From positions 186,001 to 250,000 of the forward strand of contig NZ_CP094466.1 in the NCBI RefSeq assembly GCF_023347255.1: a stretch of 64,000 nt of DNA, given 5' to 3'. The DNA is from Faecalibacterium sp. I4-3-84. Lineage in GTDB: Bacteria; Bacillota; Clostridia; Oscillospirales; Ruminococcaceae. Position numbers and translations under genes: made by a program. The notes under the pieces are model-generated. The model was not told where the DNA came from. It saw nothing but the letters and a program-made list of their open reading frames with translations, and did no database searches. This document shows positions 2,816 through 13,442 of this stretch, in pieces. The stretch's first letter is position 1. Each line of letters starts with the position of its first letter.

Positions 2816-3056
2816 TAGGCCATGCCGACACCGAGATGACTGAGTATTATCTCCATGTTCAGGAATCCATTCGGCAGAGTGCGATTCAGTTGTTCAGTGA
2901 GGCGTTTTCGGCCTGAAAATTGGACGGAACGACACGAATTGGACCAGATAAAATCGTTGGCATTGTGGTCAAAATTGTGGTCAAAACCAAATGAGGTCGG
3001 CCCACAAACAAAAAAATCCAACGATTTCTAACGTGAAATCGTTGGATTTATGGTCC
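2816..3056. repeat. left copy of 241-bp direct repeat (integrase 3' end, tRNA terminator, att core)
   Basis: This segment matches 12995-13235 over the same 241 bp without gaps and with scattered mismatches. On the plus strand it holds the last codons of a tyrosine integrase (GHADTEMTEYYLHVQ..FSEAFSA, stop at about 2919), then a spacer, then the hairpin CCAACGATTTC-loop-GAAATCGTTGG that terminates the tRNA-Pro transcript in the other copy, and finally TGGTCC, the complement of the tRNA 3' end with its CCA. To the right of 3056 the match to the tRNA gene stops. It is read as the distal attachment site of the island and as the scar of an older element at the same tRNA. Confidence 0.85.
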
Positions 3057-5523: not shown

Positions 5524-5919
5524 TCAGTCTCTGAAAATCTTATCCAATTCCCTTTCCATGGTGCCCGCCTTGGCAAATTCCAGCGTATCCGCCTGACGGA
5601 TATGGTGGGCGGTGATGCCGTGATCCTTTGCAAAGCCCAGAATGTAGCTGATGGCAATGCGGTAGATGATCTCAGTCGGCGCAAGCCCATAGACCTGTTT
5701 GGCAAAGATATGCTCCAGCCGGGCGTTGTCGTCCGGAAAAGCCTGCCGCATCTTCTCGCTGCGGTAGAGCCGCTTGACGATCTCCGTAATGTACAGACCA
5801 GACTTCATGTAGGGGTCGAGAAAGGTCTTGCCGGGGTCATCGAAGCAGCCGGGGTTTTCCTGCTCCAGCAAATCCACCATCTTTTTCACCACCCATCCTC
5901 TAACATTTTCTGATTCCAC
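5524..5919 (-). pseudogene. Eco57I-like DNA methylase N-terminal fragment
   Basis: The 131-aa frame carries the motif-I neighbourhood of a type IIG/Eco57I-like adenine methylase: WVVKKMVDLLEQENPG, DPGKTFLDPYMKSGLYITEI, then FAKQVYGLAPTEIIYRIAISY. This block normally begins the methylase domain and should be followed by an NPPY motif, but the frame ends at residue 131. It also begins abruptly inside the 3' end of the gene upstream. Deletion has joined pieces of two related methylase genes. It is not expected to be active. Confidence 0.75.
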
Positions 5920-7079
5920 GCTTTCGGTGTAGAGCCCGCATTGAACAAAAACCGTGCCGGGTGAATCAATTCTACTTTATCTGCCACTTTATAGGTTTCA
6001 TCCATAAAGAGATTATAGACCGGTGGCGCATACGTTCCATTATCGCCAAGGGTTTCATCCTGATACGGCGGGTTTCCGATGACATAATCAAACTTCATGC
6101 TGGTACTCCTTTCCTGAATGGTTTCAAAGTTCTGGGTCGTTCCATGGCCACCCTTGCGCCAGTTTTTCACTTTGCAGGATACCGTGGGCGGCTGCTCCTC
6201 TGCCGCCTCGAACATGGAGAACAGGTCAAGCTGTTCCGCCTCCGGCTGGGGCTTGCCGCCGGGCACGGAGAGGTGCAAACCGTCCATCTGCCACAGGTTC
6301 CAACTGATGTTTTTGGCGATGGTTTGCAGCTCCTCTTTTGTTGGCTTGCGCTGCCAGCGGGCTTGCAGATGCTCCGCAAAGGTCAGCAGCAGGTTGACCC
6401 GTGCCAGCAACAAATTATCGCCCTGATACTCGTAGCCGTAGGTGGACTGCACCGCATGGGTGGCATATTTGCGCCACTCGTCCTCGGTGGCGGCGTTCTC
6501 GCTTACCACACGCAGCTTGCGGTCCAGAATGCCAATGCGCCGGGCTACCGGGATCATCTCGCCGGTGGCGGCATCGTACCGGGACGCCAGAAAGGGGGCT
6601 TCGCCGCAGGTCACCTCCAAGCGGCGGCTCTGCACATACTGCACCCATGCCGGGGCTCTGCCCCCGCAAGCCGGGAACTGCACCGGCGTTTCCACCGTCT
6701 GCCAGCCTTGGGGCAGTTCCACCGTGAACTGTCCAGCGGTCTGCTCTGCCCCCAGCGCACCGAACCAGTCGGCATCCAGTGCGTTGTTCATCTTGTTGCA
6801 GACCCATGCCGGGCTGAACACCTCGCCTTTTTTGCGGGTGCGCTGCTGCTGAGTGTCGGTCTGTTTCATCATCCGGGGCAGCACCACCTCGTAGTGGGTC
6901 AGCCCGAGCTGCTGGGTGGTGATCTGGGATCTATCCGTGACAGGTTCGTACATCACCGTTTGCAGTTCCTCCGGCGGGTCGGTTGCCCAGATGATGTTTT
7001 TACCGGTGGAGCGATCTTTTAGAAGTGTATCCAGCACCGCCTGCACTTCCGGTGCGTGAAAGTCGATCAGTTGTTCCAA
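5886..7079 (-). pseudogene. Eco57I-like restriction-modification methylase, C-terminally truncated
   Basis: A 397-residue frame from TTG at 7079 (GAGGG eight bases upstream). It contains KGEVFSPAWVCNKM near residue 85, a conserved YGYEYQGDNLLLARVNLL block, and the methylase catalytic motif IV NPPY in FDYVIGNPPYQDET, near residue 337. It continues into VELIHPARFLFNAG and then stops at KMLEDGW. Family members run on for several hundred residues of target recognition and nuclease sequence. An internal ATG at about 6097 with AAGGAG could start a shorter product. The next frame belongs to a different methylase fragment, so the system looks dead or reduced to a partial methylase. Confidence 0.75.
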
Positions 7080-7607: not shown

Positions 7608-8924
7608 TCAATGATTTTTTAAGGCTTTTCGTATTTTCCCCATATTATTTTTCAAATCACGCCGAATATCTTCATCCTGCCCATATTCTTCTTCGGCGTG
7701 TTCAATATAAGTAAAATAATTTCCTCGTTTGCTCTTTGCACCATGTTCAGAATAAAGCGTATACAGACCAGAAAGATTGATATGATTTCCTTTTCCAGTA
7801 TACCCTCCTGTTTTTGCAATATTTTTTGCCTTTCTGTACATCCGATAATAGTATTTAGCCGTTGTTTTAGAACGGATAAACACTTTCTTTCCATCGAACG
7901 AAAATCCCAAGAAATTGATAAACTTTTTACTATCGTCTGCATCTTTAGAAACCGCTTTTCCGATATTCTCAACTTCTTTTTCTACATAACGGAAATATTG
8001 CGTTTTGCTTGGCTCTAGTATCAATCTTGGCGCACTGGCGATAAACTCTCGCACTTCTGAAAAAACATTCAAAACTTGACCTTCCGGTCTATCTGGCAAC
8101 ACTACTATAAAATCATCGCTATACCTCATATAGAATCCTTTATATTGTTCTATAAGGTCATGGATTTTCCTATCAACTTCTAACATATAGAGGTTTGCCA
8201 GCATTCCGCTGATTGGCGATCCCTGTGGAATTCCGTAATGATTTCTATTCGATTGTATATGAGAACGATTGTTTTTATATTGCTCTGCTGTCAATACCCT
8301 TGATTGCTTATTGAGCGCACGATGGCCTGCTTTGTTATCTTTCAGCGCATTTATTTTCAACAAGTCCGTCAATTCCCATTGACTAAACAATGTGATGTTC
8401 TTAAAAACATTATAATGGTCCTTCGGCAGTCTTTCACATCCCAGTAAAGAGCACCATTGTTTTTTCAAATAAGCATGATCTAAGTTATCAAAGAAATGCG
8501 TAAAATCGCCAATCATCACATAGCAGTTCTCTGTTTTACGGATAAAATCGTAGGCAGCTTTGGAGAATTGAATATTGCTCTTTCCTAAATTAGTACGATA
8601 AGCAACAGCAACATCAGAAATCCTATCACTAATTGTTCTCTCATTATACAATTCATTTAAAATGTGACTGTAATACTGATAAATACACCGATCAATATGC
8701 GCTGCATAACAAATATCACGGGTTTTAGGAACCAGTCCTTTTTCTTTATTAAATTTGCTCATATCCATTTCATAGTGGATAAAGGGGTAGAAGCCGTGCA
8801 TTGCAACAGATTGCGGATTCGAAACGTAATCTGTTACATGACCAATATCAGTTTTTACATCAAAATGTGCATAATACCGTTTGATTTTCCGAATAGTTTC
8901 TTTATCACTCAACCAAGCATCCAT
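7608..8924 (-). CDS. DRT-type antiviral reverse transcriptase, probable class 2 (UG2)
   Basis: The 438-residue protein has the reverse-transcriptase palm: motif A with Asp140 in GDFTHFFDN, motif B GIPQGSPISGMLANLYM (231-247), and the catalytic YSDD at 268-271. Its N-terminal region (KRYYAHFD near 15-22, YPFIHYEMD near 46-54, KTRDICYAAHID near 67-78) lacks the retron, group II intron and DGR accessory domains. By memory it fits the defence-associated Drt2 group; that assignment is not checked. The ATG at 8924 has AGGGGA seven bases upstream; a TTG at 8930 is too close to that site. The gene follows its own structured leader RNA and is AT-rich against its surroundings, which suggests recent transfer. 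DRT2 enzymes copy an adjacent non-coding RNA by rolling circle upon phage infection. Confidence 0.8.
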   Translation of the reverse strand: MDAWLSDKETIRKIKRYYAHFDVKTDIGHVTDYVSNPQSVAMHGFYPFIHYEMDMSKFNKEKGLVPKTRDICYAAHIDRCIYQYYSHILNELYNERTISDRISDVAVAYRTNLGKSNIQFSKAAYDFIRKTENCYVMIGDFTHFFDNLDHAYLKKQWCSLLGCERLPKDHYNVFKNITLFSQWELTDLLKINALKDNKAGHRALNKQSRVLTAEQYKNNRSHIQSNRNHYGIPQGSPISGMLANLYMLEVDRKIHDLIEQYKGFYMRYSDDFIVVLPDRPEGQVLNVFSEVREFIASAPRLILEPSKTQYFRYVEKEVENIGKAVSKDADDSKKFINFLGFSFDGKKVFIRSKTTAKYYYRMYRKAKNIAKTGGYTGKGNHINLSGLYTLYSEHGAKSKRGNYFTYIEHAEEEYGQDEDIRRDLKNNMGKIRKALKNH

Positions 8925-8939
8925 CTTCAATTCCCCTAA

Positions 8940-9237
8940 AATGCAATATCCACCGGCACGAGGAATAGCGTCTCTAAGCCGGTGGATATACGTTTGACGT
9001 GGTTACCCCTATTACCATAAAGGGTTTTCAGAGTTTCCAGCTATTCTGTTAGCGCAATCATCAATTATGGTATAATCGACGAGGAGGCGATTGTCTTGAT
9101 TCTTGGAATCACTCTGATTATAGCTTCAACTACATCAGCATCAACAACCGTGTCAACTGTGCTGCTAAATGTTCTCGAGAACATTCTAGCAGGATGGTTG
9201 ACAACAATCTCCTTCCCTCATACCTTTTGTATGAGGC
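8940..9237 (-). ncRNA. structured RNA upstream of the reverse transcriptase (candidate DRT template RNA)
   Basis: From a predicted start near 9237 the RNA can fold into several strong hairpins. In RNA order these are CCTCATAC-AAAAG-GTATGAGG at the 5' end, a long arm CTGCTA-g-AATGTTCT with AGAACATT-TAGCAG enclosed by TGTCAAC/GTTGACA, a TATAATC/GATTATA pair, and a perfect 12-bp stem ATATCCACCGGC/GCCGGTGGATAT (8945-8982) just before the ribosome site. About 300 nt upstream of an RT gene is the layout known for DRT2. The sense strand carries a stop-free frame from 9217 to 9068. No experimental ends are known. Confidence 0.6.
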
Positions 9238-9243
9238 ATTTTA

Positions 9244-9271
9244 ATTATAGCACTTTTTACCAAGTAATCAA
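9244..9271 (-). promoter_or_regulatory. promoter of the RT leader RNA
   Basis: On the minus strand TTGATT (9266-9271) and TATAAT (9244-9249) are separated by 16 bp, placing the RNA start near 9237, at the edge of the first hairpin. Confidence 0.65.
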
Positions 9272-12693: not shown

Positions 12694-13095
12694 AAGGTCG
12701 TAAAAAGTACGGTCAGCATCGGCAGTCCGAAATCCAAAGACAGTATCCGGGATATTCCGGTGCCGCTGAATGTCCGCTCGTGTGCCATCAAGCTGCGGGA
12801 TACCAACGACCAGTTCATCTGGGAAAGCCCCAAGACCGGCTTGCCCTGCAATCCCACCCATTTCCGGGATGTGTTCCGCAAATCTCTGGAAGAAGCGGGC
12901 GATGTCCGCTTGCTCACGCCGCACAGCTGCCGCCACACCTATGTGTCGCAGATGCAGGCGTTGGGCGTGGATATCCAGACCATCCAGAGCATCGTAGGCC
13001 ACGCCGACACCGAGATGACTGAGCATTATCTCCATGTTCAGGAATCCATTCGGCAGAGTGCAATCCAGTTGTTCAGTGAGGCGTTTTCAGCCTGA
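12694..13095 (+). pseudogene. tyrosine integrase, only the C-terminal catalytic part
   Basis: The last about 134 codons match the catalytic half of a phage-type integrase: SPKSKDSIRDIPVP, then PHSCRHTYVSQM (the H-x-x-R box), GHADTEMTEHYLHV (second His and the nucleophile Tyr) and the tail LFSEAFSA. The N-terminal arm and core-binding domains and the first catalytic Arg box are gone, and no start codon with a ribosome site exists. It cannot mediate recombination. Its 3' end lies 137 bp from the tRNA-Pro gene, the normal position of such integrases. The last 33 codons are duplicated at the left end of the island. Confidence 0.85.
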
Positions 13096-13235
13096 AAATT
13101 GGACGGAACGGCACTAATTAGACCAGATAAAATCTTTGGCATTGTGGTCAAAATTGTGGTCAAAACCAAATGAGGTCAGCCCACAAACAAAAAAATCCAA
13201 CGATTTCTAACGTGAAATCGTTGGATTTTTGGTCC
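12995..13235. repeat. right copy of 241-bp direct repeat (attachment site at tRNA-Pro)
   Basis: Same content as 2816-3056, but here the TGGTCC end runs on into a complete tRNA-Pro gene. This is therefore the tRNA-proximal attachment site of the island. Confidence 0.85.
13184..13224 (-). terminator. tRNA-Pro terminator
   Basis: On the minus strand CCAACGATTTC-loop-GAAATCGTTGG (13197-13224) is followed by a run of T residues (complement of 13184-13196), directly downstream of the tRNA. Confidence 0.8.
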
Positions 13236-13307
13236 GAGTGGCGAGAATCGAACTCACGGCCTCTTGAACCCCATTCAAGCGCGCTACCAAAACTGCGCTA
13301 CACCCGG
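13230..13307 (-). tRNA. tRNA-Pro (GGG)
   Basis: The minus strand folds as a cloverleaf. Acceptor CCGGGTG pairs with CACTCGG (one G-U), and the discriminator A is followed by an encoded CCA. The anticodon stem CTTGA/TCAAG closes the loop ATGGGGT, giving anticodon GGG for CCC codons. The T-arm is GTGAG-TTCGAAT-CTCGC. The 3' end is the integration target of the island. Confidence 0.92.
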
Positions 13308-13442
13308 ATATCGACCGCCGCTTCCCTACCGAAGCGTGGCGACATGAAATATTATACTCAGATGCAGCAGTTTTGTCAACCGATTTTTGCAATTTTCTTT
13401 GCTTTTTTCTCAAAAAGTCTGATTTTTGCGAAAGTACGCGCT

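What the first reader, a model, noticed from the sequence alone, without database searches (positions are those of the whole stretch)
7608..9271. DRT-type reverse transcriptase with its own promoter-driven structured RNA
The sequence shows a complete RT (GIPQGSP, YSDD) without retron, intron or DGR partners. About 300 nt of hairpin-rich RNA lie directly upstream, with a TTGATT-16-TATAAT promoter. In DRT2 phage-defence systems an adjacent non-coding RNA is copied by rolling circle. Here the module sits in an AT-rich patch of a defence-rich island. A Firmicutes gut version with a distinct RNA would be new or barely described.
Basis: partly seen in the sequence, partly recalled or inferred. Interest (0 to 1): 0.9.

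Follow-up and report, generated by a model that had tools for sequence, protein, structure and literature searches.

The report
Gut-bacterium DRT2 hiding a rolling-circle gene
This gut-bacterium DNA carries an anti-phage-type reverse transcriptase beside an RNA whose repeated copying is predicted to assemble a hidden promoter and an endless, water-repelling protein gene, much as in one Klebsiella system but with a different jump signal.

Summary
The reverse transcriptase (7608-8930, minus) is DRT2 (UG2), in a Bacillota branch apart from Klebsiella DRT2. Its upstream RNA is real: Rfam RT-6 covers the 5' end (9164-9238); handle, pseudoknot and tower covary across 27 sequences. New here: read as cDNA (+ strand), CAATC recurs 150 nt apart (9055, 9205). 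Joining there makes a perfect TTGACA-17-TATAAT promoter, then Shine-Dalgarno, TTG and a stop-free hydrophobic 50-residue repeat: a Neo gene. Choosing junction promoters without looking at frame, 49 of 85 DRT2 loci gave a choice and 49 of 49 were divisible by three and open (43 of 43 without near-duplicates). Open by chance: 1 of 1700 shuffles, 14 of 1748 control tiles, 0 of 1748 with perfect motifs. The jump signal is AUUG-type, not the published ACA; units are longer (126-204 nt against 111-129). The mechanism is known; the branch-wide Neo reading, the changed signal and the RT-6 link are the additions. 'Defence-rich island' is not supported among ten neighbours. A nested lineage (L062, L063, L067, L090) keeps the RNA scaffold without a Neo template. 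Nothing was tested at the bench.

The parts
7608..8930 (-). Drt2 (UG2) reverse transcriptase, 440 aa (TTG 8930; in-frame ATG 8924 is the likelier start, by inference)
   Evidence: PADLOC Drt2 2.2e-141; PDB Drt2 chain 9c0i 3.7e-54; predicted fold best matches 9c0i_A, E 1.6e-33
9266..9271 (-). -35 (TTGATT) of the ncRNA promoter
9244..9249 (-). -10 (TATAAT) of the ncRNA promoter; 26 of 27 sequences within one mismatch
8940..9238 (-). ncRNA (5' end near 9237 inferred from the -10 and the RT-6 model; 3' end approximate)
   Evidence: z -7.6; Rfam RT-6 at 9164-9238; covariation
9216..9236 (-). 5' handle hairpin of the ncRNA
   Evidence: 8 pairs, 7 with changes on both sides, 97.7% paired in 27 sequences
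9205..9209 (-). [quoted passage not shown]
   Evidence: sequence; ATTG in all 27 aligned rows, but those rows were chosen for a CAAT junction
9055..9059 (-). [quoted passage not shown]
   Evidence: sequence; ATTG in all 27 aligned rows, rows chosen for a CAAT junction
9055..9204 (+). cDNA repeat unit, 150 nt (50 codons); template for predicted rolling-circle reverse transcription
9198..9203 (+). -35 (TTGACA) of the neo promoter, at the end of the unit
9071..9076 (+). -10 (TATAAT) of the neo promoter, at the start of the unit; 17 nt from the -35 only after joining two units
9081..9087 (+). Shine-Dalgarno GAGGAGG of neo
   Evidence: sequence
9096..9098 (+). likely neo start codon (TTG; GTG in the two congeners)
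9057..9206 (+). one Neo repeat, 50 aa, frame 2 of the junction: hydrophobic, no stop, also open in congeners
   Evidence: GRAVY 1.25; the only frame open in the 150-nt units of L134 and L135
9040..9046 (-). pseudoknot, 5' strand (GAAUAGC)
   Evidence: 7 of 7 pairs with changes on both sides, 100% paired in 27 sequences
8963..8969 (-). pseudoknot, 3' strand (GCUAUUC), in the tower loop
8978..8989 (-). tower hairpin, 5' strand
   Evidence: 12 pairs, 10 with changes on both sides
8946..8957 (-). tower hairpin, 3' strand

Best explanation
A DRT2-type abortive-infection system of the Bacillota branch. The RT and an about 300-nt ncRNA come from one promoter (sequence plus inference). The RT holds the RNA by its 5' handle and its 3' pseudoknot and tower (by homology to the solved Klebsiella complex). 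On phage infection it copies the 150-nt template. [quoted passage not shown] it shifts back to the second GAUUG at the template's 3' end and starts again, giving tandem 150-bp repeats (inferred). Each repeat junction joins TTGACA to TATAAT at 17 bp. After the second strand is made, this drives transcription of a stop-free ORF (neo) with its own Shine-Dalgarno and TTG start in every repeat (sequence shows the parts; expression inferred). The hydrophobic, probably helical repeat protein stops growth of the infected cell (inferred from Klebsiella Neo).
For: Drt2 profiles, PDB sequence match and predicted fold. Unit of 150 nt, perfect junction promoter, open frame; 3 of 20000 shuffles of this upstream region give the like. 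Frame-blind test: 49 of 85 loci gave a choice by motif and repeat alone, 49 of 49 divisible by three and open; 43 of 43 among 77 loci after near-duplicates were dropped. Perfect motifs with a 4-nt repeat: 27 of 85 loci, all 27 open; 0 of 1748 control tiles. In 26 non-redundant CAAT-junction units the neo frame has 0 stops in 1286 codons (146 and 56 in the other frames) and is the most hydrophobic frame in 26 of 26. Congeners with an 87% identical RT keep the 150-nt unit, junction and frame. RNA helices covary. RT-6 is over its cut-off at the expected place in 15 of 20 DRT2 loci. All 7 genomes found by RT-6 alone and over the cut-off (the window's is one) have an open unit, 5 in the strict and 2 in the relaxed scan; three of the units are identical to ones among the 85, so they are not fully independent.
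Against: No transcription, cDNA or phage data. 36 of 85 loci give no choice in the strict scan. The relaxed scan, which demands an open unit, passes 68 of 85, but also 534 of 1748 control tiles (326 with spacing 17 only), so it is weak evidence; 17 of 85 have none. With a 3-nt repeat the blind test has exceptions: perfect motifs 35 chosen, 34 open (controls 10 chosen, 5 open); one mismatch 62 chosen, 60 open (controls 152 chosen, 44 open). The jump point is inferred from a 5-nt repeat. Neo shows no third-codon-position bias among close pairs, so its protein sequence is not visibly under purifying selection. The published ACA pair is absent. The Shine-Dalgarno begins only 4 nt behind the -10, so the first repeat may be translated poorly. 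NCBIfam's Drt2 cut-off is narrowly missed (383.5 of 390).
Confidence: 0.86

Rival explanations
1. A DRT2-family RT whose RNA templates repetitive cDNA that acts as DNA itself (as in DRT9 or DRT10), with no Neo protein.
For: Neo amino-acid sequence evolves freely; a nested lineage (L062, L063, L067, L090) keeps the scaffold without a Neo template; DRT9, a near relative, makes homopolymer (PMC12483538, passages).
Against: Divisibility by three with an open frame in 49 of 49 blind picks; 0 stops in 1286 codons; junction promoter and Shine-Dalgarno; none is needed for a DNA-only product.
Confidence: 0.07
2. The upstream RNA only regulates or marks the RT gene (leader or attenuator); the RT works without it.
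For: The RNA lies directly before the RT start and ends near its likely ribosome-binding site (inference).
Against: A handle, pseudoknot and tower are also described for the Klebsiella DRT2 RNA, and here they covary; a variable template lies between two AUUG copies.
Confidence: 0.03
3. A decayed or captured RT (group II intron-like or retron-like) with no defence role here.
For: It sits on a patchy stretch with fragments of an integrase and a methylase; 3 of 31 genomes of the genus hold it, and the other genome of its species does not.
Against: ORF intact, catalytic motifs present, RNA structure kept in congeners; Rfam finds no intron or retron RNA in the window at gathering scores; Drt2 outscores group II and retron models by far.
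Confidence: 0.04

Closest known systems
Klebsiella pneumoniae DRT2 (Wilkinson 2024, PMC12039810; Tang 2024 preprint, PMC11100668)
   Same: RT family and fold (28% identity in the Foldseek match), ncRNA before the RT, handle, tower and pseudoknot, TTGACA and TATAAT out of order in the template and 17 bp apart after joining, unit divisible by three, stop-free hydrophobic ORF (published side: passages and one section)
   Different: Jump signal CAATC/GAUUG instead of ACA; unit 150 nt (126-204 among the non-redundant blind picks) against 111-129 in the published close homologues; the tree places it in a separate 71-row group, 100/100
Rfam RT-6 RNA (RF03027)
   Same: Window 9164-9238 matches over the whole 75-position model
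   Different: RT-6 covers only the handle, the jump signal, the -35 complement and the template's 5' part; the rest of the template, pseudoknot and tower lie outside the model
DRT9 (UG28) and DRT10 (UG17)
   Same: RT with an ncRNA that templates repetitive cDNA
   Different: Published products are homopolymer or short tandem repeats, with no gene reported (PMC12483538, PMC12632851, passages); PADLOC scores 64.9 bits (Drt9) and 64.1 (RT_UG17) against 470.3 for Drt2

Membership tests
DRT2 (UG2) system | RT of the Drt2 lineage | tested here: met
DRT2 (UG2) system | upstream ncRNA with handle hairpin, tower and pseudoknot | tested here: met
   a third helix (4 pairs, perhaps the buttress) is 93.4% paired and one of its pairs fails in the window itself
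DRT2 (UG2) system | template that rebuilds a sigma-70 promoter across the repeat junction | tested here: met
   TTGACA-17-TATAAT, no mismatch
DRT2 (UG2) system | repeat unit divisible by three with a stop-free frame | tested here: met
   150 nt; frames 1 and 2 open; frame 2 is the one open in the other CAAT-type units
DRT2 (UG2) system | tandem-repeat cDNA made by the RT; Neo expression; phage defence | not testable with these tools
   needs bench work
Klebsiella-like DRT2 subgroup | ACA trinucleotides at both template ends (reported for 42 close homologues) | tested here: not met
   both ends carry GAUUG in the RNA; no ACA at the 5' end; not filed in this subgroup
NCBIfam NF041746 Drt2 equivalog | score at or above the curated cut-off of 390 bits | tested here: not met
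   383.5 bits; not filed under this model
Rfam RT-6 | score above gathering 46.7 | tested here: met
   76.9 bits
Retron | retron RT model above cut-off and msr-msd RNA | tested here: not met
   best retron RT model 50.2 bits, cut-off 235; no retron RNA family in the Rfam scan
Group II intron | intron RNA and maturase above cut-off | tested here: not met
   TIGR04416 75.9 bits, cut-off 300; no intron RNA
DGR | template and variable repeats with adenine changes | not tested
   no dedicated search was made

The most novel reading that the evidence does not exclude
Bacillota DRT2s are a second branch of gene-writing RTs with their own jump code (AUUG- or GUAU-like in the RNA instead of ACA) and longer, fast-changing Neo toxins. 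Inside that branch a Lachnospiraceae-type lineage (L062, L063, L067, L090; RT with a Cys-rich N-terminus) has thrown away the Neo template and kept RT, handle, pseudoknot and tower over a 53-68 nt template, so DRT2 has switched from making a gene to making another, unknown DNA product.
Probability: 0.45. Interest if true: 0.72.

Novelty: new variant of a known kind. Interest (0 to 1): 0.56.

Why it matters
Tang and colleagues write that Neo was harder to annotate in more divergent DRT2 clades and raise alternative mechanisms there (passage); whether the window's branch is among those clades I could not see. Here one rule (junction promoter, jump repeat, length divisible by three, open frame) reads Neo in much of a divergent branch, which supports the same mechanism with a changed jump signal. 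It proposes a function for the Rfam family RT-6 and lists toxin genes hidden from gene finders in gut bacteria. It also makes two questions testable: what sets the jump point, and what the short-template lineage writes instead.

Tried and rejected
Group II intron, retron and DRT9-like readings: rejected on profile scores and Rfam. Frame 1 of the window unit, also open: rejected because only frame 2 is open in the 150-nt units of the congeners and in the other 25 of the 26 non-redundant CAAT-type units. Purifying selection on Neo: looked for and not seen. Defence island: 10 neighbours scanned, one strong hit. Viral contigs: no match with the single protein, one locus with the alignment. Spacing as separate proof: with perfect motifs and a 4-nt repeat, 17 is the peak (27) but other spacings also occur. 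Relaxed scan as proof: dropped, since 534 of 1748 control tiles pass it. Positive controls outside the set (4 Gram-negative plasmid loci, 1 Enterococcus plasmid): L114 gives an open 111-nt unit; L115 and L021 give no open unit; L116 gives none and its RT match begins 58 nt from the end of the record; L117 has perfect boxes at 17 with a 145-nt unit, which breaks the rule, and an open 144-nt one at 16. The Klebsiella locus itself was not fetched or scanned. Short-template lineage in 391 genomes of the class at E 1e-40: 4 matches, the window and three other Drt2s at 41-46% identity, no further close member. Papers: searches returned nothing for RT-6 RNA with RTs; one search listed no paper with 'RT-6 motif' among its 10 rows; two searches listed the DRT2 papers; (15 of 3,106 shown) listed only unrelated ones. 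Most subscription papers, such as the final version of Tang 2024, are not held, so this is no proof of absence from print.

Rows left out: L084 (no upstream DNA) from the 85-locus scan; L002 and L003 are the same contigs as L054 and L055; one search drops L002, L003, L030, L037, L049, L057, L071, L081. One search drops L030, L037, L049, L055, L081 from 31 CAAT-type units. The 27-row RNA alignments hold only CAAT-type loci, chosen after the scan, without L003, L030, L037, L049. The tree leaves out L046, L081, L085, L099, L104 (frame broken or short) and L002, L003.

Full report
The RT. The minus-strand ORF 7608-8930 encodes 440 aa with GIPQGSP and YSDD. PADLOC puts Drt2 first at 2.2e-141, the next RT class at 4.7e-21. 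NCBIfam Drt2 scores 383.5 bits, just under its cut-off of 390. In the PDB the best sequence match is the DRT2 RT 9c0i (3.7e-54). An AlphaFold2 model from 27 sequences (mean pLDDT 89.8) matches 9c0i_A best (E 1.6e-33, TM 0.81), ahead of DRT9 (3.5e-12) and group II intron RTs. In a tree of 83 RT rows the Klebsiella RT sits in a 12-row group and the window in a 71-row group, both branches 100/100; wherever the tree names a phylum, the first has no Bacillota and the second only Bacillota (3 rows are labelled phages, 1 viral contig; a few name no phylum). The root is only a midpoint.

The RNA. Rfam finds RT-6 RNA at 9164-9238 minus (76.9 bits). The 299-nt stretch folds 7.6 standard deviations below shuffles. 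I aligned 27 sequences: the window and 26 CAAT-type relatives. The 5' handle (8 pairs) is 97.7% paired; slid controls reach at most 57.9%. In the 3' part the pseudoknot (7 pairs) is 100% paired with compensating changes in all seven pairs, the tower (12 pairs) 99.7%, a third helix 93.4%; slid controls for the whole reach at most 52.3%. Wilkinson and colleagues describe a 5' handle, tower, buttress and pseudoknot for the Klebsiella RNA (section 9, part 1 of 2 read). RT-6 was over its cut-off in 15 of 20 DRT2 loci searched, each time before the RT; L018, L039, L059, L074 and L085 had none. Searching by RNA alone, 5 of 394 genomes of the order and 3 of 391 of the class were over the cut-off, seven different genomes with the window's own. 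Six have an open RT frame with YxDD beside it and one a broken Drt2-like ORF. Below the cut-off L110 (42.5 bits) has an RT; L027, L111, L112 and L113 do not.

The hidden gene. On the + strand CAATC stands at 9055-9059 and 9205-9209. Joining at this repeat gives a 150-nt unit with TTGACA, 17 nt, TATAAT, then GAGGAGG and TTG; frames 1 and 2 are free of stops. Published Klebsiella-type units have the same logic: -10 near the 5' end and -35 near the 3' end of the unit, 17 bp apart once joined, lengths divisible by three (passages of PMC12039810).

Is it chance? I took up to 480 nt upstream of 85 DRT2 loci and chose, without looking at length or frame, the best pair of motifs (at most one mismatch in all, 17 nt apart after joining) with a repeat of at least 4 nt. 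49 of 85 gave a choice; all 49 had a length divisible by three and an open frame. Without near-duplicates it is 43 of 43 among 77 loci. Dinucleotide shuffles: 48 of 1700 gave a choice, 1 of them open. Tiles of the same loci outside the RNA: 55 of 1748 gave a choice, 21 divisible, 14 open; several of the 14 lie in the RT gene itself. With perfect motifs 0 of 1748 tiles gave a choice, against 27 of 85 loci, all open. With a 3-nt repeat two exceptions appear, L064 and L077, and controls rise: perfect motifs 34 of 35 open (controls 5 of 10), one mismatch 60 of 62 (controls 44 of 152). A relaxed scan that demands an open unit passes 68 of 85 loci but also 534 of 1748 tiles, so I do not rest on it. 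For the window alone, 3 of 20000 shuffles reach a perfect open unit.

Neo. In 26 non-redundant CAAT-type units the frame set by the junction has 0 stops in 1286 codons, the other two 146 and 56; its mean hydropathy is 0.76 against -0.28 and -0.81, and it is the most hydrophobic frame in 26 of 26. The ends are alike (I/M-L-N-Y-x-I-I, LTT) in part because they carry the promoter and the jump repeat; the middle is free. There is no third-position bias. One repeat is predicted as two helices at low confidence (pLDDT 68.2). Tang and colleagues report helical Neo (passages); Wilkinson and colleagues got low-confidence strands or helices (passages).

Congeners. Two of the 30 other genomes of the genus carry the RT at 87% identity; the other genome of the same species lacks it. 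Similarity runs from about 6125, where the DNA held for the congeners ends, to 9322, just outside the ncRNA promoter; in L134 it breaks between 7119 and 7390. The jump repeats, both neo promoter boxes, handle, pseudoknot and tower pairing, and unit length are kept; in the 150-nt unit only frame 2 stays open.

Setting. The module lies in a 10.2-kb stretch between 241-nt direct repeats (2816-3056, 12995-13235) of which the right one reaches a tRNA-Pro (13230-13307), with a serine recombinase, a gene with NikA/MobC-like and resolvase-like parts, and a tyrosine integrase end. Of 10 neighbours only the Eco57I-like methylase is a strong PADLOC hit. This looks like a mobile patch, not a shown defence island.

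Limits and verdict. Everything on expression, cDNA, toxicity and defence is inferred from the Klebsiella system. The jump point is inferred. 17 of 85 loci show no unit even with relaxed rules: six rows of the Klebsiella-side group, the five rows with the Cys-rich N-terminus, and six others (L075 has little upstream DNA). In four of the Cys-rich rows (L062, L063, L067, L090) handle, pseudoknot and tower remain by eye and alignment of four, but the template is 53-68 nt with no promoter boxes; in L069 no RNA was recognised. The window holds a DRT2 system of a divergent Bacillota branch with a predicted Neo gene behind a different jump signal. The mechanism is known; the branch-wide reading, the RT-6 link and the lineage without Neo were not found in the searches made, and of the papers only the passages and the section cited were read.

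Noticed in passing
L062, L063, L067, L090 (about 2700-2920 of each); L069: A lineage nested among Neo-bearing DRT2s: RT with a Cys-rich N-terminus, ncRNA with handle, pseudoknot and tower but only a 53-68 nt template without promoter boxes or Neo; L069 has the RT but no such RNA was recognised upstream. Sister L064 has a longer template with both boxes.
   Followed up: partly
2816-3056 and 12995-13235: 241-nt direct repeats (95%) with an integrase 3' end, 10179 nt apart; the right copy runs into tRNA-Pro. A further 98% copy of 12995-13310, tRNA part included, lies elsewhere in the genome.
   Followed up: partly
5886-7079 and 5524-5919, minus: Eco57I-like type II methylase followed by a short overlapping ORF with a weak methylase match: looks like a split or truncated restriction-modification gene; at least its part from about 6128 is shared with the congeners L134 and L135.
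   Followed up: no
L018 (MT839204.1), L019 (MT837010.1), L020 (CP103976.1): Drt2 RTs with a neo-like open unit (165, 135, 132 nt) in records labelled as phage, among them Clostridioides phage HGP05; L018 also holds group II intron RNA pieces.
   Followed up: partly
9216-9236, plus strand: The handle hairpin reads as a terminator-like site on the other strand; it lies just outside the repeat unit.
   Followed up: no
L056, L057, L058, L061: Paenibacillus group with weaker boxes; with two mismatches allowed and a CAAC repeat, a 138-nt open unit was found in L057 and L061 only.
   Followed up: partly
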